A DNA stretch of 64,000 nucleotides from a bacterium. GTDB lineage: Bacteria; Armatimonadota; Zipacnadia; Zipacnadales; Zipacnadaceae. The notes beneath the pieces are model-generated. The model searched no databases. It had not been told where the DNA came from and saw nothing but the letters and a program-made list of their open reading frames with translations. The stretch is from positions 12,792-76,791 of the forward strand of contig JAUVXR010000009.1 of assembly GCA_030603495.1 (NCBI GenBank), written 5' to 3'. This document shows positions 22,396-61,774 of this stretch, in pieces. Numbering within the stretch: the first letter of the stretch is position 1; every line of letters starts with the position of its first letter. Position numbers and translations under genes: made by a program.

Positions 22396-23369
22396 TGGTG
22401 GCACTCGATGTGGTTGGCGATCTCTTCGGCTAGATCATAGTTGGCCCGGTCCAGCAGCGCATAGCAGACAAATATCTTGTTCTCCTGTTGACAATGCCAG
22501 GCATAGCCCAGCAATCGGTCCGCGCACTGCCGTCCGGTAATGTGCCGTGCAAAACTCTTCAACCCCCACAAGGGCGTCATACGGTTACCGCTGAACGAAA
22601 CTGCGGGGTGGCCGCGAAACTCCCGCTCCTGGGACTGCGGGCCATACCGGCGCAGCTCCTTGCCCAGCGCTGTCTGAAGCCACTCATTGAGACTCTCCTC
22701 GCGAAGCAGGGTTGCGGCCATGCCCCAGCGTCCCACGGTTACCGTCTCGGTCTCGCGGGCAAATGACAGCTTTATGAGGCCGGGAAACATCTCCTGGGTA
22801 CTGAGCGCGAAATCCTTGGGCATCTGACAGGCAAAGCCGTAGGCGGCCCAGGTCACCCAGTCATCACCGGGATGGTCCTTGATTGTGCTCAGCACTTGCT
22901 GGGCCGTGGCCAGAAGTTGAGCGTCGTCAGGCAAGCCCATAACCTGGGCAACGACTGTGCGCTCGCACTGCTTACAGACCCAGACTACCCCGTAAGCCTG
23001 TTGTACGTCTTCCCGGCCACGTGGACGCCCAGGCGACGAGGTGCTCCATGCAAAAGTCTGGAGACTATCTTTGTGCATCTGCCGCTTACTGACGACGTGT
23101 GCATCCCGCTCACTGGTGAACTGCCGCTTATCTCGCCGCGCCCGCTTCTCGATAGAGGCCAAGTACTTGTCAAGGGTCTCTGGCAGATCCACGAAGCCGG
23201 GTGTACTCACCCACTTGATTTCCAGCCGCGGCATGTCACGGTCGTCAACTCGCAGATAGCCTTCTTTCTCGTCGGCGGAGACAGATGCCAGCGACCAGTC
23301 CGCCGGCACGCGGACGGTCATGCCGTCCCATCCGATTAACTGTTGGCCCTGCTGGTTGCCTTTAGTCAT
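22392..23369 (-). CDS. Unknown protein coupled to the TPR-zincin gene
   Basis: I do not recognise this 325-residue protein. It has no clear signal peptide and starts with a hydrophilic N-terminus (MTKGNQQGQQLIGWDGMTVR). It seems to hold two similar halves, each opening with an aromatic strand followed by P-x-D-W/F (VRVPADWSL near residue 18, CQMPKDFALS near residue 185), so an internal duplication is possible. One CxxC pair (VWVCKQCERT) is visible. It sits 24 bp after rodA and overlaps the next gene by ATGA, so rodA, this gene and the zincin gene form one operon, suggesting an envelope or quality-control role. Confidence 0.6.
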   Translation of the reverse strand: MTKGNQQGQQLIGWDGMTVRVPADWSLASVSADEKEGYLRVDDRDMPRLEIKWVSTPGFVDLPETLDKYLASIEKRARRDKRQFTSERDAHVVSKRQMHKDSLQTFAWSTSSPGRPRGREDVQQAYGVVWVCKQCERTVVAQVMGLPDDAQLLATAQQVLSTIKDHPGDDWVTWAAYGFACQMPKDFALSTQEMFPGLIKLSFARETETVTVGRWGMAATLLREESLNEWLQTALGKELRRYGPQSQEREFRGHPAVSFSGNRMTPLWGLKSFARHITGRQCADRLLGYAWHCQQENKIFVCYALLDRANYDLAEEIANHIECHQ

Positions 23370-23393
23370 TTCGTGGCCAAGGGTACGGGCTAG

Positions 23394-24512
23394 TCAGAAA
23401 GCTATCTTCCGTTTGCGCATATGAATGCTCTGGAGGATGCCGACTGCGGCAAAGTTCGCTACCATACTGCTGCCGCCGTAGCTAACAAAGGGCAGCGTCA
23501 TTCCCTTAACCGGGGCCAGGCCCAACGCCATCCCAATGTTGGCGACGATATGAATGAGGAACATTGCAGCTACTCCCGCCGCCAGCAGGCGGCCTAGGAT
23601 GTCTTTGGCCGCCCAGGATATGGCTAGACTCCGCCACATTAGCATCGCCAGCAGCCCCAGCATCACCGTTGATCCGACGAATCCCCATTCCTCGCCGACG
23701 ACCGTGAATATGAAGTCCTTTTCCTGATGAGGTATGAACGACAGACGGCTCTGAGTGCCCTGGTAGAGGCCCTTGCCCAGAAAGTGCCCTGAGCCGATGG
23801 CAATCAGCGACTGCCGAATCTGCCAGCCAGCTCCATACTGCTCATTCTCCGGATGCATAAAGGCGGTGAGTCGCTCCTTGTGATATGGGCGAATAATGTC
23901 GGCGCCCCAGGCGGCAGCAAACAGCATCATCAAGGCGAAGCCAAAGGCAGCCAGGTGGGTCAGCTTCGCCCCCGCCAGGAAGAGAACAAAAAACCAGATG
24001 AATCCTAGCACCACCGGTGTCCCCAGGTCCGGCTGCAGGAATATCAGTGCTGAGGGCACCAGGATATAGGCCAGCGAGCGTACTACGGTCTCAAAGGTCT
24101 GCTGCTCTCCACGCATCCGGCTAGCAAGGTATGTACCCAGGACAATAATGACGGCAATCTTGGCCAATTCCCCGGGCTGCACGCTGAGCGGGCCAAGTGA
24201 CAGTCGCCGCGCGCTGCCATAGGCGATCGGGCCGATGGCAAGCACTAGCAGTAGCAACGCCATCACCAGCCCGTAAATGAAGGGGCTGAGAGTGGGCAGG
24301 CGGTTGTAGTCAACCATCATCACCAGGAGCATAACCACCAGCCCGACGAGTATCCAAATAAGCTGGAGGCTTACAGTACGGGTAGGAGGCTCGTCGGCCA
24401 TGGCTAGCTGGGCCTGGGTGCAGCTATATATCATCAGCGCCCCGTAGGCGCACAGCAACAGTACGACGGCAAGGAGCATCAAATCAGTTCGCGAAAACAA
24501 GGCTCTGTCCAT
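23394..24512 (-). CDS. rodA: SEDS peptidoglycan glycosyltransferase RodA
   Basis: A 372-residue SEDS-family polymerase for lateral wall growth. It has about ten membrane helices from LLAVVLLLCAYGALMIYSCT onward. Family motifs include SLGPLSVQPGELAKIAVIIV, QPDLGTPVVL, AFMHPENEQYGAGWQIRQS, AIGSGHFLGKGLYQGTQSRL, FIPHQEKDFIFTVVGEEWGF and GMTLPFVSYGGSSMVANFAA. RodA works with a class B PBP and MreB; the PBP is not adjacent here. ATG 24512 lies about 12 nt after the expected transcription start of the extended -10 promoter. Confidence 0.95.
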   Translation of the reverse strand: MDRALFSRTDLMLLAVVLLLCAYGALMIYSCTQAQLAMADEPPTRTVSLQLIWILVGLVVMLLVMMVDYNRLPTLSPFIYGLVMALLLLVLAIGPIAYGSARRLSLGPLSVQPGELAKIAVIIVLGTYLASRMRGEQQTFETVVRSLAYILVPSALIFLQPDLGTPVVLGFIWFFVLFLAGAKLTHLAAFGFALMMLFAAAWGADIIRPYHKERLTAFMHPENEQYGAGWQIRQSLIAIGSGHFLGKGLYQGTQSRLSFIPHQEKDFIFTVVGEEWGFVGSTVMLGLLAMLMWRSLAISWAAKDILGRLLAAGVAAMFLIHIVANIGMALGLAPVKGMTLPFVSYGGSSMVANFAAVGILQSIHMRKRKIAF

Positions 24513-51515: not shown

Positions 51516-54500
51516 CTACTCATCAATCTGCAGCAGATCGTCGTTCTCTAGGTCTTCAGCGGCGCCCTGAAGCCACGCTCCAAACAGCGCCTGGGCCTCC
51601 TGTTTGGTCAGGGCCCGGCCCGCTAGTAGATCGCGCAATTGCCCAAAGTCCCGGGGGATAAGCGTCTTCCCGGCCAGAACGCGATTTATGTGTCCGATGA
51701 CGTCGTCGGTGAGCAGCTTCAGCACCTGCGGCGCACTGGGCTCGACAGTGAGTTCGGTAATTGCGTGGAGCTTAGCATTGACATCGCCCTGCTGGGGCAA
51801 GGCCAGAGCGTAGGTACTAAGCTTCGGACGCAGGCTCGGGCTGCTGAGCGCAGCGAAGTACTCGCCCAGGCCGTGCTCAGTAGCCTCGACCAGTTCCTGG
51901 GCTGAGGGCAGTTGAAGCTCCTGGCCGAGCCGGATGTGGCATTGGGGGCATATCGGCTCATTGTCCAGATCGTCCGCCAAGTCAGCATTGCTGCACTGCT
52001 GGGCCAGAAAGCTCTGGATTATCTCTCCCACCTGGGCCGCGTCCTGCTCCACCTTGATATCCAGGCCCTGTAGCTGGGCCAACGCTCGGTATTCCGGACT
52101 GGCGCGGAAGCGCCGGTAATGCTCGAAGATCGGGTTGCGGTGCGCACGGCTGTGCCAGTTGAGGTAGTGGCGCTTATGGCGAATTAGGAAAACCTGCACC
52201 ACCCGGTGGAACGACAGTTGGTCGCTGATGATCTCTTCGCCGCTTGCCAGCACCGCCAGCAGGCCAGTACGGCGCTTACCGAGATCGGATTCTCCGGGCA
52301 GTTGCAGCAGAGGACTGGTGAGGTACCGCTGGATTCTGATTAGCTCTGGGCCGATCCGGTTGAGAAACTCCTCCAGAATGGTGATCCGCCTGAGTAGGCT
52401 GCGCAGTAGCGTACTGCCCTGCCCGTCTTCCAGGTACGGTTCCAGTTTGCCGATAAACTCGCTGATGCCCTCCGGGCTGGACTTGGCCGGGTCAATCATC
52501 TCGTAGAACTCAGCGGCAGCCGAGATGTCGAGCGCGCAGTTAGCCCATTGCTCAGGAGCCTGGCCCAGCGCTTCGGCCAATTCGTCAAGCTGTCGCTCAA
52601 CTTGCCCGATCCGGTCAAGTTGGACCTCGCGGGCCGCGACTAGCTGCTCCCAGATCTCGTGCTGAACGCGTAGACTTGGTCCAGGGATGCCCTGGTCGAG
52701 CACAATGCGCGTGACCTTGCCCAGGGCCTGCCAACTACTCAGCGGCAGCAGAGCAGGGCGGGCGATGTAGTGGACGTGACCGGCGAAGGGCAGGGGAATG
52801 TCCTCGAACCGCACCGGCTGGCGCTCGGCATCCAGCGCTATCAGGTATCCTAAGCGAACCAGCGTGGCAATGGCCAACTCGAACAAGTGCGGCGGCAGTC
52901 CCAGGGGCGATTTGAGCAGGTGTTGGGCTAGGTCCGGGCACGACAGCGGTCGCCCCTGTTCGTGTTGCGGGGTCTGATCCCGCTGGCGGATACGATTGAG
53001 AATCTCCTCGGCCGCCGCGCTGTTGCTCGCGTCGAGGCGAAGCTTATCTCCCTCGATCTCGACTAGCCTGAGGGGAAGCAGGAAGGCCTCCGCCAGTTCC
53101 CGGATAGCCGACCCGGGCGAGCAGGTCAGTTCCCCAACAGTGACCAGCTCGGCAACAAGCCGATTGATCTGGTCCTGGTTGGTGAGCACGCGATGCGGTG
53201 CGACCGCGGGAAAATCGGGAAAGAGAGCGCCCAAGCTGGGCGCAGCGATCTTGGATAGTGTGACGGTCCAGTCACCAGCAGTCGGCAGAAGCTGCTCGGC
53301 AGGCATCAGCAGCCCGCTCAGCGTGGCTATCTCCCCGTGGTAGTACGCTTCGGTAGCGATTTGCCGAACCTGGCTGTCCAGCGTCATCCGCTCTTCCACC
53401 AGGCGGCTGCGCCAGGCACTCTGGAGCTCGACCTCGGGCGGCGGCTGCTGCAACAACTGGTGGCAGGCAGCGGCTTGCTTGACGATTGCCATTTCCTCCG
53501 CTGTCAACGCCCGCGGCAGCCACGCCACGAGACCACTGTACCACCGGGCCTTGCCCGCACTCTCCTGGAGGTGCGACCAGACGGCCTCCTGGTCTGGTAC
53601 ACGCAGCAGCTCGCCTACGAACACCTGGCAGTCCTCGGGAGTAGCGGGGTCCGCTAACTCGGCGGCGTATGCCTCCAGTTGCGGCGCAGTCAGACTGGCC
53701 AGATTGGCAATCTGAACAGCGGCGCAGCGAGTCGTGTTCTGCCAGATGACCTCATACGGTTGGTTGCGGGTCAGCTCCGTTAGCGGGAATACGGGGCTGT
53801 CGCAGGCCGCGACGATGCGCTGCCACAGACGCGCATCATCGTCAGCGAACGTAGCCTTCACGGCGTTGAGGCGCTGCCGCACCAGGTCGCTCAGATTGGT
53901 GTACGCGTCAATAAGGTAGACGGACGACTCTGGGTCGGGACCACGCCGCACGTCTACGTAGCTGCTGGTCAGGCGCAGCGTCTCGAGTATCTGCCTGGCC
54001 TGTGGGCGATTTAGGCGGGCGGCCCCGCTGGCATCTGTCCCCATGCATTCAGCGATCGTTTTCGCCGATGCGGAGACGTTACCCAGACGCAGCACGATCA
54101 TACAGCGAATCACGTCCAGCGCCACGTCGGGATTCTCCGGCACGAGTTCGGTGATGTTGCGCTCGTAGAAGTCAAGCACCTCGTTGAAGTAAGGGCTGGC
54201 CTCAGGATGCGAGGCAACTGTGGCTTGCACATACTGGATCAACTCGGGGGGACCGATCAGTTGGCTGCTCGGCCGGTCAGCGAACGCGCCTAGCCCCCCT
54301 ATCGCCGCCGAGGCCGCCACAAACTGCAGCAAGCCGTCGGCAGCCCCCCCAAAGCGCTGAGTGATGGCTTGCAGGCACTGTTGTGCCAGGGGGTGGAGCG
54401 GGTAGGTCTCTGCCAAATCTTCGTCAGTGAAACTCAGCTCACCGAGCGCTTCTTGGTAACTCGCCCGCGCTTGCTCGCGGGCGGCCCTCAATTCTGTGGG

Positions 54501-55544
54501 GCTAGTGCGGCTCACTATGCGCTGGCGGGCGACCCGCGTCATCTGCTGGCTGGAGAGAGTGAAGGTCGCATCATACAGGGCGCGCAGGCTGCCCATCAAG
54601 TACGGTTCCAGGCCGACAGTGTGTTCCAGACCGTCTTCAATCGCCGCGATAATATGCACAGGCTCAATCTTACTGCGCTGGCCGAGGAACTCCAGAAAGC
54701 TGCAGTCGCTGTGAATGGCCTTACGGTCAACACTAGCCAGGAAGGCAGAGAGGTCGTCAATCAGCCAGACGACGCCCTGGAGGTGTTGTTCGAGCAGAAG
54801 TTGCAACAGCCGTGAGAGTCGTTCGATGCGCGACTGGCGGAAGTCCAGCGGATAACCCAGTTCCTGCGCCACTCGCTGAGCCACGGTAATGGCCTCGGCG
54901 GGACTGCGCCGCCGCAATTGCTCCCAGGTAGTATAGCCACCAGGCTCGTGTCGCGCTCGGTCGTTGAGTTCATCGGCGTAACGCGGGACGATGTGACGCT
55001 CTATTAGGTCAAGTGCGTATGATTGCTGGGATAGCGGTACAGGCGCGTCATACTTCGCACGGGCCAACTCCTGTGCGGTCCGGTCGAAGATGATGTCTTC
55101 GAGGTGTTCTTGGTCGCCGCGGTGCTCGTCGAGGGGCACCGGCACGACCAGCACTGGTCGGGCTTGCTCGATTCTTCGGACGCCCGGCGCGAAATGGGCG
55201 TGGTTGCTCAGTAAGAGCCGCCGCCCTGCCGCGTATTCCAACAATAGCGCCACTACGGCCAGCAGGTGTGACTTGCCGCTGCGTGCTGGCCCCCCCACCA
55301 GCATGGCGGAGCCCTCGCCACCGTCGCTCATCACTGCATCAATGATCCCGCTCAGCGCATCTTCGGCCTCATCGCCCTCCGCGGCGATGTAGTCCTCCAA
55401 CACGCCTCTCATCTGAGCAGCCACGGGCAACGATAGCTCGTCAGGCTCCCGCGCCAGCTCCTCGCGCAGCGAGGCGAGGTTGCTCAGCGATACCAGCTCG
55501 ATGTCTTCGGAGATGCTTATTAGATCCCCAATAGTTGGTCGCAA
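51516..55544 (-). CDS. Giant P-loop ATPase resembling BREX/DUF6079 (PglY-like) proteins
   Basis: A 1342-residue cytoplasmic protein with no signal peptide. An N-terminal helical segment (residues 1-75) leads to Walker A MLVGGPARSGKSHLLAVVAL at about residue 80-100 and a Walker B-like VVWLIDDLSAFLASVDRK near residue 260. Next come a sensor-like stretch (EPVHIIAAIEDGLEHTVG) and YPLHPLAQQCLQAI. The C-terminal 900 residues are mostly helical and unassigned, with one CxxC pair near residue 1195 (ICPQCHIRLG) and no obvious second pair. Size, Walker placement and the DYI...GSGKSHLLAV block resemble DUF6079/BrxC/PglY ATPases of BREX phage defence, but no methylase, PglZ or Lon-like partner is nearby. 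The TTG start follows AGGTG. It is 111 bp upstream of the LptC-like gene on the same strand. The assignment is by eye. Confidence 0.7.
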   Translation of the reverse strand: MRPTIGDLISISEDIELVSLSNLASLREELAREPDELSLPVAAQMRGVLEDYIAAEGDEAEDALSGIIDAVMSDGGEGSAMLVGGPARSGKSHLLAVVALLLEYAAGRRLLLSNHAHFAPGVRRIEQARPVLVVPVPLDEHRGDQEHLEDIIFDRTAQELARAKYDAPVPLSQQSYALDLIERHIVPRYADELNDRARHEPGGYTTWEQLRRRSPAEAITVAQRVAQELGYPLDFRQSRIERLSRLLQLLLEQHLQGVVWLIDDLSAFLASVDRKAIHSDCSFLEFLGQRSKIEPVHIIAAIEDGLEHTVGLEPYLMGSLRALYDATFTLSSQQMTRVARQRIVSRTSPTELRAAREQARASYQEALGELSFTDEDLAETYPLHPLAQQCLQAITQRFGGAADGLLQFVAASAAIGGLGAFADRPSSQLIGPPELIQYVQATVASHPEASPYFNEVLDFYERNITELVPENPDVALDVIRCMIVLRLGNVSASAKTIAECMGTDASGAARLNRPQARQILETLRLTSSYVDVRRGPDPESSVYLIDAYTNLSDLVRQRLNAVKATFADDDARLWQRIVAACDSPVFPLTELTRNQPYEVIWQNTTRCAAVQIANLASLTAPQLEAYAAELADPATPEDCQVFVGELLRVPDQEAVWSHLQESAGKARWYSGLVAWLPRALTAEEMAIVKQAAACHQLLQQPPPEVELQSAWRSRLVEERMTLDSQVRQIATEAYYHGEIATLSGLLMPAEQLLPTAGDWTVTLSKIAAPSLGALFPDFPAVAPHRVLTNQDQINRLVAELVTVGELTCSPGSAIRELAEAFLLPLRLVEIEGDKLRLDASNSAAAEEILNRIRQRDQTPQHEQGRPLSCPDLAQHLLKSPLGLPPHLFELAIATLVRLGYLIALDAERQPVRFEDIPLPFAGHVHYIARPALLPLSSWQALGKVTRIVLDQGIPGPSLRVQHEIWEQLVAAREVQLDRIGQVERQLDELAEALGQAPEQWANCALDISAAAEFYEMIDPAKSSPEGISEFIGKLEPYLEDGQGSTLLRSLLRRITILEEFLNRIGPELIRIQRYLTSPLLQLPGESDLGKRRTGLLAVLASGEEIISDQLSFHRVVQVFLIRHKRHYLNWHSRAHRNPIFEHYRRFRASPEYRALAQLQGLDIKVEQDAAQVGEIIQSFLAQQCSNADLADDLDNEPICPQCHIRLGQELQLPSAQELVEATEHGLGEYFAALSSPSLRPKLSTYALALPQQGDVNAKLHAITELTVEPSAPQVLKLLTDDVIGHINRVLAGKTLIPRDFGQLRDLLAGRALTKQEAQALFGAWLQGAAEDLENDDLLQIDE

Positions 55545-55863: not shown

Positions 55864-56517
55864 GTGAACAAGGTACTCGGATACATAATAATTGCCATCG
55901 CGATTATCTACATGCTGGTGTCAGCCGGCGACTTCCTGCCCAAGTACACCGCAGTGCCGTACCTGGTCGACCACCAGGAAGAGCTGGGCCTGAGCACCAG
56001 CACTACGAATTTGCGCTTCCACATGATGTGGGAGATGGTCGTGGACGTCATCGTCGCCGTGCTGCTGGCCATTGTCGGCTGGTGGGTGACCACCACCGAA
56101 ACGGAGCAGTACGGCTATATGATGGCGGTGGGTCTGGTACTGCTGGCCTTCGTGGTCATCTGGAATGTCCCTCTGATCCCGTTTCGCGTCGCCCGCGTCT
56201 CACCGCAGGGGGCATTCTACAACGCCAAGGTTAGATTTGAAGTCAACGGCGATACGACCCGGCGATGGGTGATCATCCCTCGCCGTGAAGGGCAGCGAGT
56301 CGGCTTAATCGAGAAATATCAGGACCCCAAGTTGATCGGCAAGAAGGAGGTGCTCCTCGAGTTTGACGACAACAGTGCAGCTCTTGCCGCCTATAATAGC
56401 TCCGCTCCACCTATAGCGATATTCGGCCAGATGCGCGGCACGCGCAACCTAGCCGTCAAAAAATACATCTATACGGTGCCGGCTGTGAGAGTGCTCGAGG
56501 TAGGCACAAGCGAATAA
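55864..56517 (+). CDS. Membrane protein of unknown function
   Basis: I do not recognise this 217-residue protein. Three membrane helices lie in the first 105 residues (VLGYIIIAIAIIYMLVSAGD, MMWEMVVDVIVAVLLAIVGW, GYMMAVGLVLLAFVVIWNVP). A beta-rich soluble domain follows (VSPQGAFYNAKVRFEVNGDT, WVIIPRREGQRVGLIEKYQD). The GTG start has AAGGAG 11 nt upstream. It is coupled (TAATG) to the next membrane gene. Confidence 0.65.
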   Translation: MNKVLGYIIIAIAIIYMLVSAGDFLPKYTAVPYLVDHQEELGLSTSTTNLRFHMMWEMVVDVIVAVLLAIVGWWVTTTETEQYGYMMAVGLVLLAFVVIWNVPLIPFRVARVSPQGAFYNAKVRFEVNGDTTRRWVIIPRREGQRVGLIEKYQDPKLIGKKEVLLEFDDNSAALAAYNSSAPPIAIFGQMRGTRNLAVKKYIYTVPAVRVLEVGTSE

Positions 56518-56888
56518 TGGCCGTGCCGCAAAGAGAAGACCCGTGGTGGTTTGTGGCCGTTGCCACACTTATAGTGGTGCTGGCGTTGTCTGTGGTCATC
56601 CCGGTCCGCCTCATCGGCCCGGTCTTCGGACACTCCGGCCGTGTCGCGGACTCGCCCGATGCAACCCTCGAACTGCCACCCCCTCCGCCCCCGGGCCCAT
56701 TTCTGCCCGTGGTGGCGCTGGTACTGGGTGGTGGTCTGGCGGTTCTCTCTATCTGGAAAGCCTACGATGAACGCGAGGTGAATTCCCGCTGGGCCTGGAT
56801 GTTGGTCGCAGCGGGAATTGTCTTGCTGTGGGCTGTGCTTATGCTGCGGATGACCGTCGGTTGGTCACCCGCACTGGCCGCAGGCTAA
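56517..56888 (+). CDS. Small membrane protein of unknown function
   Basis: A 123-residue protein with three likely helices: VAVATLIVVLALSVVIPVRL, LPVVALVLGGGLAVLSIWKA and WAWMLVAAGIVLLWAVLMLR. A proline run (LPPPPPPGPF) precedes helix 2. The ATG shares its A with the upstream TAA stop. It may form a complex with the preceding membrane protein; function unknown. Confidence 0.65.
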   Translation: MAVPQREDPWWFVAVATLIVVLALSVVIPVRLIGPVFGHSGRVADSPDATLELPPPPPPGPFLPVVALVLGGGLAVLSIWKAYDEREVNSRWAWMLVAAGIVLLWAVLMLRMTVGWSPALAAG

Positions 56889-57067
56889 TCAGTCACCAAC
56901 AGCCAAAGTCACACTCTCGGTGCTGCGGAGGTCTTCCTGCCCTGTGTCAGGGGTGTGGTTACCTGGTGGCGAACAACTCAACCCGCCCGCCGCGTCCAGG
57001 GCTGTCACGGCATTTGCGACTGGCCAAATCACCGGCCGGGACCTCGTGCTCGGGGCCATGGCTTCCG

Positions 57068-57349
57068 TTGCTGTTGGCCGAGCCTAATCTGCTGCTACGC
57101 TTCCCCAGGAATCTGGCATTGACTTCAGCCGAGTTGATCACCATATACACGATGATGGTCGTCGCCTCAGCTATCCCTACTATGGGCCTGACCGCGCAGG
57201 TCATCCCCATTGCCAGCGGCGCGTACTACTACGCCAGCCCCAAGAACAACTGGGCTCAGAGCTTTCTGCCGCACATCGCCGCGTGGACAGCCCTGGACGC
57301 GCCGGTGACTACCCATCTCCACGAGTTTAATTTTGCCTCCTTGGGGTAG
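57068..57349 (+). pseudogene. Remnant of a DUF6785-type integral membrane protein
   Basis: The frame ending at 57349 reads LLRFPRNLALTSAELITIYT, then MMVVASAIPTMGLTAQVIPI and ASPKNNWAQSFLPHIAAW. This matches the start of DUF6784/6785 proteins (LTxAELLxIYxMLxxASAIxGxxxxxxLxPxLxxxxYFATPENxW). A stop follows about 90 residues in, where relatives run for over 600. An adjacent frame near 56994-57065 (GRDLVLGAMASVAVG) could be the first helix of the same gene, shifted. The remaining sequence between 56889 and 57476 shows nothing else. Confidence 0.6.
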
Positions 57350-58454: not shown

Positions 58455-58659
58455 ATTCTGACATTCCTCCTATGCTTCATTATACTATTTAGGATTCCCT
58501 GTTCATTGCACTGGTTCCTGCGGAGGTGGATTATTCACCTGGAAACACCCCAGTTGGCAAGACTTCTGAGGAAGATTCCGCGCTGAATTGAACAAGTATG
58601 ACAGCTCTTGGACCCCTGCTCTCTTACCTCCCACTGCTAAGTGGGAAATGCGGGTACGA

Positions 58660-59006
58660 AGGTCTCCCCGCCGGCGGCCTCCAGTATCCGGCCAGAGAAC
58701 AGCTGACCACCTCCCAGTACGACTGCTGCCAGCCGTCGCCGGTAATGGTCTGACAGCGGCGCGGTACATCCCGGAGGTCATAGGAAGTGCCGTCAGCGTC
58801 AACTTGCAGCGGTGGGCCGATGTAGGTGGTCCTGCGATGTAATAACGGAAGTCAACTCCGAACCCAGTCAGCAACTCCTCGCGGCTGGCAAGGCTCAGGT
58901 GGCTGAGCAGCTTATCGTCCATCTCGCGCGTAGACCAGAAATCCATCGGTACGCGGTCCGGCTCCTGATGGCGCAGCGCTTGCTTTACGCGTTCCTGCAC
59001 TGTCAT
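58660..59006 (-). pseudogene. Truncated, frameshifted URO-D-family gene
   Basis: From ATG 59006 the frame reads MTVQERVKQALRHQEPDRVP and MDFWSTREMDDKLLSHLSLA up to GVDFRYYIAGPP, a standard URO-D-methyltransferase N-terminus. At about 58826-58831 one base is missing: the correct sequence continues in another frame as YIGPPLQVDADGTSYDLRDV and QQSYWEVV. Similarity fades near 58690. About two-thirds of the gene is gone. It lies 49 bp or more upstream of the intact URO-D gene on the same strand. Confidence 0.8.
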
Positions 59007-59196: not shown

Positions 59197-61774
59197 CTAC
59201 TGTCCCCCAATTGTAAAGCTGTCTCCGGCGCCGAGCTGGAGACTCTTGGGGAACTCGATGACCTCTGGCTCGACATTTGGAGCCGCTTGCAGCTCGAGCC
59301 GGTTGAGCGCTATTTCGCCGTACTCGACTGACAACCAGGCATTCAGTCCGTTTTCACTGGAGTGGTGAGCGTATGAGCCCCAAGCGGTCGGCACAGACCA
59401 GAAGCAGCGAAAGTCGTCGGTGTTGACTTTTGGCGCAAAGCACATTGATTTATCCACAGCGGAATAGTGGAAGCCGGACAGGGCCAGAATTAGGCTCCAG
59501 GCCGCCATCGCCCGGGCATAGTGGTGGCCGCATTCCGGCTCATCCCACGGATTTCGCTTTTCGCCGTCGTGTCGCTCACGTGTGCTGCGGACAATCTCCA
59601 AGGCCGGATCAATCATTTGCTCGTAGATCAAAGAGGCCGCCAACATATACTCAAAGCCGGTCCACACCTCGCAGAAAAAGTGGAAGGGGAGTTCGGGCCG
59701 CTCGCCGTGTGGCCAAGTGCCGATGACCAATCCCGCCTCGTCGCCGAGGGCGTAAGTGCGTGCTACATTACTATGTTCGCTCAAGGTACGTTTGTAGTTG
59801 TAGCGAAAGATTGCCTGGAGAGTTCGGCGAACATGTTCCGGCTCGAGCAGATAACCCAGATCCGAGGTATGGGCAAACCACTGACCTACGAGCTGGTCGG
59901 CGAGGCAACCCGGTCCGGTTTGATGAATCGGCTCACCCGTCAGCGTGACGTCGCCGACCAGTGTATCCGGTATTATGAGTCCCGGGGCGACTTGCTCGGA
60001 GGGCTGCGGGCGAATATCCTGGAAATAATACTCGCCATTGAAGCCGTGTTTGTCCCACCAACTACTCCCACTAGTGAACAGCTTTTGGTAGCAGTCAGCG
60101 GCTTCGTCGTCACCCACCGCGCCGGCCATTTCTTCGGCAGCCCGCAGCGCACCCAGATACCAGAAGCCGGTCTGCGGCGTCGGCCCGTGGTACTCAATGT
60201 CGTAGGTGTTATGCTGCACGCCCTCCATCACACCGTCCCGGTTCCCATCCCATCCACCGGTGATCCACGCAAACTCCAGGGCCTTCTTTGCCTGTGGCCA
60301 CAGCTTTCTCAGCCATTGGGTATCGCCCGACAGTTGCCAGTCACGGTGCAGGCGCATGATTGTACCCATCTGTCCGTCAGCAACAGCCGTACCGCCTTGA
60401 CCAGTACCCAGCGGTAGGACGGTGCGGTACCTCATCAGGCCCCGCTCGTCGGTATCGTTGAGAAACTCCGTATTGCGCATTGAACGTGTCAGAGTGGGGA
60501 AGAGGAAGGCCGTGGCCTGCTCGTAGTTCCAAACGTGGGTGCAGGTGCCCGCACAGCAACCGTGTCGGGGAGCGCAACCTTCAAAGGCATGGAACTCGCC
60601 GTCAGCGGTGCGCATACAGGTCTGCGTGCGGAGGGTCGAGACGTTGCTCATCGCCGCGTCGAGCACGAAGTCCGGCAGCGTACTGCTCAGCATTGAGCGT
60701 ACATAGCGCGAACTTTTTTCTTCTAGGTCGGCAAGATTGCGAGCAGTGTAGTGCGCTGCTTCCCAGGCATCAGCAAAGCGTTCGGTGTAGTGATTACCGA
60801 GCCAGTTCTGCTCAGCTGCTTCCCCACTCCAGCCGCAGCCGGTGACGGTACGGTTGGGAAAATGCCAGGCTAGGATGAACGGGAGCTCGACGCTTTCGCC
60901 CGCCGCGAGCTGCGCGTGCAGCGCCAGAGCGCACAGATGGGTCTGATAGGCTCCACTGGGGTAATTAGGTTCAGTATCGGCCAGCCGTCCGTCGTCAGTT
61001 ATATCATCCCAGTACGCCAGTAAGCTGGAATTCCGCCAGCCGGGACGCGGGCACAGCAGCCGATAGCTTACCTCATCCCATGTACTCAGCAAGGCCATGC
61101 TCCCGAATCGCGGTGAGTCCTGAGCATACTTGCTTGAGGTGAGGCGAATCCCGTGGGCATTATCCTCGGAGACGAATTCGTTCAGGTTCTCCCCGAAGCA
61201 CGCTGCTCCCAGACTAGTCAGATCCTCCGAACCATCAGCACCAATAGGGTTTGCCAGGCTTAGGGCTATGGTCGCGTTGACCAGTGCGCTGCCGGTGTTG
61301 GTCAGCTGATAACGTAGGATAGCCACCTGGCAGTCCCGATTCGTCCGCGTCCAGCGGTATGAGCGGATTAAAAGCTTCCAGGGCAACACTGATAGGCAGT
61401 TGGGCGTCGGCGAACTCGATCCGGGCGAAGGGATAGGCACCAGTAAAAATTGCCCGCTCCAACCGCGGCAGGCCGGCGGCCTGTTCAAAAGGCAGCCCGC
61501 CCCCGCTTGAATAGGGCGGCTGGAGGCGCGATTCCAGCACCCGGGTCAGCGGTGGTTCGCCCTTCTGCTCCACCCACAGTGTCGCAAAGCTGAACGGCAT
61601 CACAAAGCCCTTTCCGGGACGGTTGAATATTTCCCAATCCCGCAGTTGTCCGCGGCCGCCTAGGGATACCGTGCCCGTGCCGATTCCGCCGAGGGGGAAG
61701 GCGATCTCGCGTAGTTGCCGCCCGCTGAATCGCCGCACCTTACCACTGTCAAATATTTCGGTCAGATTGCTCAT
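59197..61774 (-). CDS. GH116-type glucosylceramidase/beta-glucosidase, single-base frameshift
   Basis: A GBA2-like beta-glycosidase of about 858 residues, split over two frames. Part 1 (61774 to about 61330) has GRQLREIAFPLGGIGTGTVS, LRDWEIFNRPGKG and the ARIEFADAQLPISVALEAFN strand. Part 2 continues with AILRYQLTNTGSALVNATIA, FEGCAPRHGCCAGTCTHVWN, DGQMGTIMRLHRDWQLSGDT, WITGGWDGNRDGVMEGVQHN, YDIEYHGPTPQTGFWYLGAL and CLADQLVGQWFAHTSDLGYL. Removing one C at about 61326-61327 joins ESGLPVAILRYQLTN perfectly. I cannot place the catalytic Glu and Asp with certainty, but the conserved FEG, CLADQ and YDIEYHG blocks are intact. No signal peptide. ATG 61774 follows GGTGGAG. Likely a sequencing error or a very recent break. 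Confidence 0.88.

What the first reader, a model, noticed from the sequence alone, without database searches (positions are those of the whole stretch)
51516..55544. Orphan 1342-residue BREX/DUF6079-like ATPase without defence partners
The N-terminal P-loop block, the Walker B-like IDDLS and the total size resemble PglY/BrxC-type DUF6079 ATPases, yet no methyltransferase, PglZ, Lon-like or restriction gene is nearby. It shares strand with LptC/LptA-like genes 111 bp downstream, and an accessory zone full of gene fragments begins right behind it. It may be a single-gene defence factor or an ATPase recruited to envelope work.
Basis: partly seen in the sequence, partly recalled or inferred. Interest (0 to 1): 0.75.

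Follow-up and report, generated by a model that had tools for sequence, protein, structure and literature searches.

The report
Disarmed stand-alone BREX ATPase, core gene
A large protein that looks like the central motor of a bacterial anti-virus system is kept by nearly every species of one bacterial order without the rest of that system and with its motor's catalytic residues missing, so it has probably been taken over for a permanent, non-motor job, perhaps on the chromosome.

Summary
The ORF at 51516-55544(-) is real: 1342 aa, intact, DUF6079/BrxC family. Its predicted N-terminal half (AAA+ plus first winged helix) matches solved BrxC of Acinetobacter BREX best. It is an orphan: no methylase or PglZ beside it, and PglZ and BrxB were not detected in its genome.

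Relatives change the picture. The organism is an Armatimonadota MAG (Candidatus Zipacnadia/WS1). The gene is found in essentially every genome of its order (19/19 high-quality), one copy per genome, and its tree follows RpoB. It is under strong purifying selection. In at least one same-order genome it coexists with a separate canonical BREX locus. That is a vertically inherited core gene, not a mobile defence gene. The lpt linkage holds only within the window's family.

All 37 order members examined lack the Walker-B glutamate, the arginine finger and the sensor-2 arginine, while Walker-A lysine and Walker-B aspartate are kept. All 25 relatives outside the order keep both arginines. A BrxA-like gene sits directly upstream in several lineages but is undetected in the window's.

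Best reading: a domesticated, catalytically disarmed BrxC homologue working as a static, possibly DNA-associated scaffold. Lineage, conservation and disarming are well supported; the cellular role is inferred.

The parts
51516..55544 (-). stand-alone BrxC/DUF6079-family protein, 1342 aa, TTG start
54216..55412 (-). AAA+ module, residues about 45-443
   Evidence: AF2 model pLDDT 86.6; residues 3-545 match BrxC 9zdx at Z 20.7
55269..55292 (-). Walker A GPARSGKS (residues 85-92), intact
   Evidence: Lys91 kept in 36/36 order members with the column present
54753..54773 (-). Walker B VVWLIDD (residues 258-264): Asp263 kept, catalytic Glu replaced by Asp264
   Evidence: order 35 Asp + 2 Gly, 0 Glu; relatives outside the order 23/25 Glu
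54576..54578 (-). arginine-finger position (R330 of Acinetobacter BrxC), Leu323 here
   Evidence: 0/37 Arg in the order, 25/25 Arg outside
54336..54338 (-). sensor-2 position (R430 of Acinetobacter BrxC), Asp403 here
   Evidence: 0/37 Arg in the order, 25/25 Arg outside
53895..54215 (-). first winged-helix region, residues about 444-550
   Evidence: inside the stretch aligned to BrxC 1-550; domain name after PMC13326643
52695..53894 (-). alpha+beta region (about 551-740) followed by further helical/winged-helix-like region (about 741-950); boundaries inferred
   Evidence: AF2 model of residues 541-1342, pLDDT 89.7; order of parts as in BrxC (PMC12839542); no PDB match
52140..52694 (-). long paired helices, coiled-coil-like, residues about 951-1135
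   Evidence: AF2 secondary structure
51939..51995 (-). C-x14-CxxC motif (Cys1184, Cys1199, Cys1202), possible metal site
   Evidence: invariant in 28 aligned members; also in PglZ-linked DUF6079 proteins of other Armatimonadota, absent from the type-1 BrxC in L180

Best explanation
It is a domesticated member of the BrxC (PglY, DUF6079) family. An ancestor of several Armatimonadota lineages kept a BREX-type BrxC, at first with a BrxA-like DNA-binding partner, after PglZ and the methylase were gone. In the ancestor of the window's order the AAA+ module then lost the residues needed to hydrolyse ATP and to pack subunits through an arginine finger. What remains is a protein that can probably still bind nucleotide (Walker A Lys and Mg-binding Asp kept) but should not cycle. 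It most likely works as a static dimeric scaffold, held together by its C-terminal helical region, that uses its winged-helix and alpha+beta parts to sit on DNA and organise or mark chromosome regions. SHOWN here by computation: family, fold of the N-terminal half, universality, vertical descent, purifying selection, separation from canonical BREX, loss of the catalytic residues, linkage of the BrxA-like gene in some lineages. INFERRED: residual ATP binding, lack of hydrolysis, dimerisation, DNA binding, any cellular role.
For: Family: Pfam DUF6079 above cut-off, 18/19 relatives; AF2 N-half matches BrxC 9zdx Z 20.7 over 469 residues, next ORC/Cdc6 at Z 14.4. Core: match in 36/36 order genomes of 80% completeness or more, 19/19 high quality (in G033 only a weak 19-bit fragment). 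Vertical: distance correlation with RpoB 0.93, highest of 2000 permutations 0.33; 24 of 34 splits shared, 0.24 expected; four families monophyletic in both trees. Selection: dN/dS 0.12-0.24, RpoB 0.08-0.16. Disarmed: 0/37 arginine finger, 0/37 sensor-2 Arg, 0/37 Walker-B Glu in the order against 25/25, 25/25 and 23/25 outside. Not BREX: PglZ profile hits in 1 of 41 order genomes, and weakly; one order genome (G031) carries a separate BrxA-BrxB-BrxC-methylase locus and three more have a BrxB match, two of them with a DUF6079 start beside it. Former partner: BrxA-like gene directly upstream in 8 genomes of three families, above Pfam's BrxA cut-off in two. Published analogue: R330E in Acinetobacter BrxC abolishes AAA+ self-association and phage restriction; E269Q keeps ATP-dependent DNA binding (PMC13326643).
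Against: No experiment and no co-conserved pathway names the function. The protein is acidic throughout (net -62), as is a canonical BrxC (-54), so charge neither supports nor excludes DNA binding. The C-terminal half has no solved relative. The window's lineage has no detectable BrxA-like partner. The PglZ profile search may miss divergent members: it listed none in G031, whose BREX locus ends in an ORF that reads as PglZ-like by eye. The exact branch on which each catalytic residue was lost is uncertain because family f4 and G042 are placed differently in the two trees. Asp can partly replace the catalytic Glu in some NTPases.
Confidence: 0.5

Rival explanations
1. A constitutive, lineage-wide defence protein: a single-gene (or BrxA-like plus BrxC) immune factor fixed in the order, acting by binding foreign DNA and blocking its replication or transcription without ATP cycling.
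For: Every close characterised relative is a BREX, Ssp or DUF499 defence protein (PMC12839542). Sister lineages f23 and G052 carry BrxC with PglZ and PglXI-type methylase. BrxA-like partner kept in part of the order.
Against: Universal, vertical, single copy, not in islands; coexists with canonical BREX in the order; catalytic and self-association residues lost, and loss of R330 function abolishes BREX defence in Acinetobacter (PMC13326643).
Confidence: 0.25
2. Envelope function: the protein works with the downstream LptC/LptA-like genes in outer-membrane assembly.
For: Same strand and adjacency in the window and in G001, G006 and G011, with lptA alone recognised in G004 and G005.
Against: Linkage only in two genera of family f1; other families have unrelated downstream genes; gap 80-340 bp, no signal of co-transcription. 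No membrane or export feature was seen in the predicted secondary structure.
Confidence: 0.05
3. Still an active, if slow, ATPase with rewired catalytic residues (Asp264 as base, other Arg or Lys as finger).
For: Walker A Lys and Walker B Asp are strictly kept; Asp replaces Glu in 35/37.
Against: Family f4 has Gly at that position; the finger position carries Leu, Ala, Gly, Ser, Asn, Thr, Met, Ile, His or Tyr; sensor-2 is Asp in 34/37. I did not search systematically for a compensating conserved Arg.
Confidence: 0.2

Closest known systems
BrxC/PglY AAA+ ATPase of BREX (Acinetobacter BrxC, PDB 9zdx, 9zll)
   Same: DUF6079 family, same predicted fold of the AAA+ plus winged-helix half, same order of parts, similar length
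   Different: stand-alone core gene without PglZ, BrxB or methylase; arginine finger, sensor-2 Arg and Walker-B Glu lost; carries a C-x14-CxxC motif not found in the type-1 BrxC checked (L180)
BrxC of the type-3-like BREX loci of other Armatimonadota (G052, G058, G202, G203)
   Same: sister lineage in the tree; Cys motif of the same kind
   Different: next to PglZ and/or a PglXI-type methylase (BrxA-like next to PglZ in G203); catalytic residues intact
Stand-alone BrxC homologues of other Armatimonadota families (f14, f18, f24, f30, f36)
   Same: no PglZ or methylase of the types searched recognised beside them; moderate clade support (84)
   Different: arginine finger and sensor-2 Arg intact, Walker-B Glu intact in nearly all
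DUF499 and SspC ATPases
   Same: weak profile similarity in the AAA+ part
   Different: DUF6079 scores higher than DUF499 in Pfam
ORC/Cdc6 AAA+ initiators (non-hydrolysing ORC subunits as an analogy, from general knowledge)
   Same: fold of the AAA+ part (Z 14.4); precedent for non-cycling AAA+ scaffolds on DNA
   Different: lower score than BrxC; different C-terminal parts

Membership tests
BrxC/DUF6079 protein family | profile match above the curated cut-off | tested here: met
   37.2 bits against 23; 18/19 relatives
BrxC/DUF6079 protein family | N-terminal AAA+ plus winged-helix fold of BrxC | tested here: met
   Z 20.7, rmsd 5.9, 469 residues to 9zdx_C; best non-BrxC Z 14.4
BrxC/DUF6079 protein family | C-terminal alpha+beta, winged-helix and coiled-coil parts | tested here: inconclusive
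   element order of the AF2 model agrees and the DUF6079 profile matches residues 1086-1218, but there is no solved structure to compare
Active BrxC ATPase | Walker-B Glu, arginine finger, sensor-2 Arg | tested here: not met
   D264, L323, D403 here; 0/37 in the order for each residue
BREX system | PglZ next to brxC | tested here: not met
   no PglZ among the neighbours
BREX system | PglZ anywhere in the genome | tested here: inconclusive
   no PF08665 hit in the own genome, one weak hit in 41 order genomes; the profile may miss divergent PglZ (see G031)
BREX system | BrxB | tested here: not met
   no PF08747 hit in the own genome; very divergent BrxB-like proteins could be missed
BREX system | BrxA or BrxA-like partner | tested here: not met
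   not found in the own genome or family, although present in families f4, f5 and f8
BREX system | methyltransferase PglX next to brxC | tested here: not met
   no methylase recognised among the translated neighbours or the clustered neighbourhood
Mobile defence gene | patchy, transferred distribution in islands | tested here: not met
   universal in the order and congruent with RpoB; no relative found on viral contigs. Across the whole phylum presence is patchy: 43 of 205 genomes
Lpt envelope pathway partner | conserved linkage to lpt genes | tested here: not met
   adjacent only in genera g1 and g3 of family f1
Any phage-defence system | protection in a phage assay | not testable with these tools
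   needs experiment

The most novel reading that the evidence does not exclude
A defence AAA+ ATPase was domesticated in a whole bacterial order into a catalytically dead, possibly essential chromosome-associated scaffold, in steps that can be followed in living lineages: BREX-type locus, then stand-alone BrxC (with a BrxA-like partner in some lineages), then disarmed BrxC.
Probability: 0.35. Interest if true: 0.85.

Novelty: new variant of a known kind. Interest (0 to 1): 0.62.

Why it matters
BrxC is treated as a defence component only. The BREX survey read here assigned hits to types by gene neighbourhood and discarded the small unassigned fraction (PMC12839542), where an orphan like this one could fall. 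A core, vertically inherited, catalytically disarmed BrxC would show that the DNA-binding scaffold of BREX is useful without motor, nuclease or methylase, would be a clear case of defence-to-housekeeping domestication, and would offer a natural separation-of-function variant for asking what the BrxC AAA+ motor contributes.

Tried and rejected
Lpt partnership: dropped, linkage lineage-restricted. Mobile defence gene: dropped after the RpoB comparison; a first run of that comparison had two RpoB sequences read from a wrong frame and was repeated. NCBIfam gave only spurious sub-threshold hits. HHalign of the BrxA-like alignment against one canonical BrxA sequence gave nothing usable; Pfam's BrxA model gave the support instead. 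Net charge as a DNA-binding test was uninformative because canonical BrxC is equally acidic. Foldseek of residues 541-1342 found no solved relative. Viral contigs: none of 31 candidate stretches is a relative. A weak hit in G033 (19 bits) was not counted as an orthologue. A residue alignment row from G204 was out of frame in its N-terminal part and was left out of the residue counts.
Full report
Observation. The ORF 51516-55544(-) is intact, 1342 aa, starts at a TTG shortly after an in-frame stop and has orthologues of the same length. Pfam places it in DUF6079 (PF19557, 37.2 bits, cut-off 23), the family to which BrxC/PglY belongs (PMC12839542); 18 of 19 relatives scanned also match. PADLOC gives weak SspC and BrxC hits. 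LptC-like and LptA-like genes follow on the same strand, 183 bp downstream if the first standard start codon is used.

Fold. AlphaFold2 on residues 1-600 gives pLDDT 86.6. Foldseek's six best PDB chains are all BrxC of Acinetobacter BREX, and VIA-align puts 9zdx_C at Z 20.7 over 469 residues (model residues 3-545), with ORC/Cdc6 next at Z 14.4. Residues 541-1342 give pLDDT 89.7: an alpha+beta region, further helical or winged-helix-like parts, long paired helices and a C-terminal helical part, in the order described for BrxC (PMC12839542). No solved structure matches this half, so that part of the assignment rests on the DUF6079 profile and on element order.

Organism and distribution. Orthologues in named records belong to Candidatus Zipacnadia, WS1 and other Armatimonadota MAGs; the class is described in PMC10290634. 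In the order, all 36 genomes of 80% completeness or more have a match, 19 of 19 high-quality ones (G033's is only a weak fragment). Most have a single place; where two places are listed in one genome they cover different, consecutive parts of the protein. In the phylum, 43 of 205 genomes of 90% completeness or more have a relative.

Descent. Trees of the protein and of RpoB for 37 genomes share 24 of 34 splits (0.24 expected under label permutation). Pairwise distances correlate at 0.93 (highest of 2000 permutations 0.33), 0.91 within the order. Families f1, f3, f5 and f6 are monophyletic in both. dN/dS between close pairs is 0.12-0.24, against 0.08-0.16 for RpoB. A shared upstream neighbourhood (a 216-259 aa membrane-protein-like family and Gfo/Idh/MocA-like oxidoreductases) recurs near the gene in families f1 and f5, as expected for a gene that has long stayed in place. 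This is how a core gene behaves.

Relation to BREX. No PglZ was detected in the own genome; in the order only G036 has a weak match. BrxB was not detected in the own genome. Four order genomes (G028, G031, G032, G035) carry a BrxB match elsewhere, three of them with a DUF6079 start beside it; G031's locus reads BrxA-sized, BrxB, BrxC, methylase-sized and, by eye, a PglZ-like ORF, which the PglZ profile search did not list, so that search is not exhaustive. The stand-alone gene and canonical BREX coexist as separate things. In family f23 the DUF6079 protein is followed by PglZ, with a PglXI-type methylase nearby in G058 and G202 and a BrxA-like gene in G203; G052 has BrxC, methylase, helicase and PglZ. 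In G055 the gene has a methylase-like neighbour, so it may not be strictly stand-alone. In the ML tree the stand-alone sequences (with G055) form a clade with moderate support (UFBoot 84); the smallest group holding them and the f23 sequences, which also takes in the G052 BREX protein, has 99. The order without f4 has 97.

BrxA-like partner. A gene of about 280-370 aa lies directly upstream, same strand, in G017, G022 (f4), G023, G035, G038, G039, G040 (f5) and G042 (f8), and elsewhere in the genome in G049, G053 and G058. Pfam BrxA is above cut-off in two members (25.3 and 27.0 bits against 23) and below it in three others. It was not found in families f1 (the window's), f2, f3, f6 or genus g8.

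Catalytic residues. In the Acinetobacter BrxC structure ATP is contacted by K78 (Walker A), E269 (Walker B), R430 (sensor 2) and, from the partner, K326 and R330 (PMC13326643). These positions were transferred by HMMER alignment to the PDB chains and a joint alignment. In 37 order members Walker A Lys is kept (36/36 present) and Walker B Asp (37/37), but the Glu position is Asp (35) or Gly (2), the R330 position is never Arg, and the R430 position is never Arg (34 Asp). Sensor-1 Gln is kept in 4. In 25 relatives outside the order (9 BREX-type, 14 other stand-alone, 2 same-class), R330 and R430 are Arg in all and the Glu is kept in 23. Loss of three or four separate catalytic positions in a gene under purifying selection points to a change of function rather than decay. 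Published mutants tell what to expect: E269Q lowers ATPase but keeps ATP-dependent DNA binding and stabilises AAA+ pairing; R330E blocks AAA+ self-association and abolishes phage restriction (PMC13326643). Note that R330E left the ATPase rate of the isolated domain unchanged there, so loss of the finger speaks to assembly more than to hydrolysis; and charge reversal is harsher than the natural Leu. This is a guide, not proof.

Mechanism. Most likely a static dimeric scaffold, probably nucleotide-bound, using its winged-helix and alpha+beta parts on DNA. DNA binding is inferred from family, not shown; net charge does not help. Constitutive defence remains the main rival.

Limits. The named order records are MAGs. 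RpoB is one marker. Genome-wide absences depend on profile sensitivity. The placement of f4 and G042, and hence the exact branch of each loss, is uncertain. Residue alignment at 13-14% identity to Acinetobacter BrxC was cross-checked with intermediate sequences, not with a coordinate superposition.

Noticed in passing
window 56828-57349 and 58503-59006: Remnants of genes intact in sister genome G001 (L025): only residues 93-165 of a 666-aa membrane-like protein remain, and a uroporphyrinogen-decarboxylase-like gene is broken into two frames.
   Followed up: partly
window 59197-61774: A large glycosidase-like gene appears as two overlapping ORFs (763 and 179 aa) in different frames on the minus strand: frameshift or sequencing error.
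   Followed up: no
window 55864-56517: 217-aa membrane-protein-like ORF, divergent from the ATPase gene, conserved near it in families f1 and f5, often with two Gfo/Idh/MocA-like oxidoreductases; no Pfam family.
   Followed up: partly
L168 5555-9259 and L167 6315-10079: In family f30 the stand-alone BrxC homologue lies between a trpG/pabA-like gene and nadB- and lysC-like genes in two genera.
   Followed up: no
L171 5812-12465: In G203 a DUF6079 protein, PglZ and a BrxA-like protein lie in a row with no methylase seen in the fetched stretch: possible minimal BREX variant.
   Followed up: no
G050:C15 about 22886-23701 (L174 6863-7702): BrxA-like gene in a genome where no BrxC homologue was found.
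   Followed up: no
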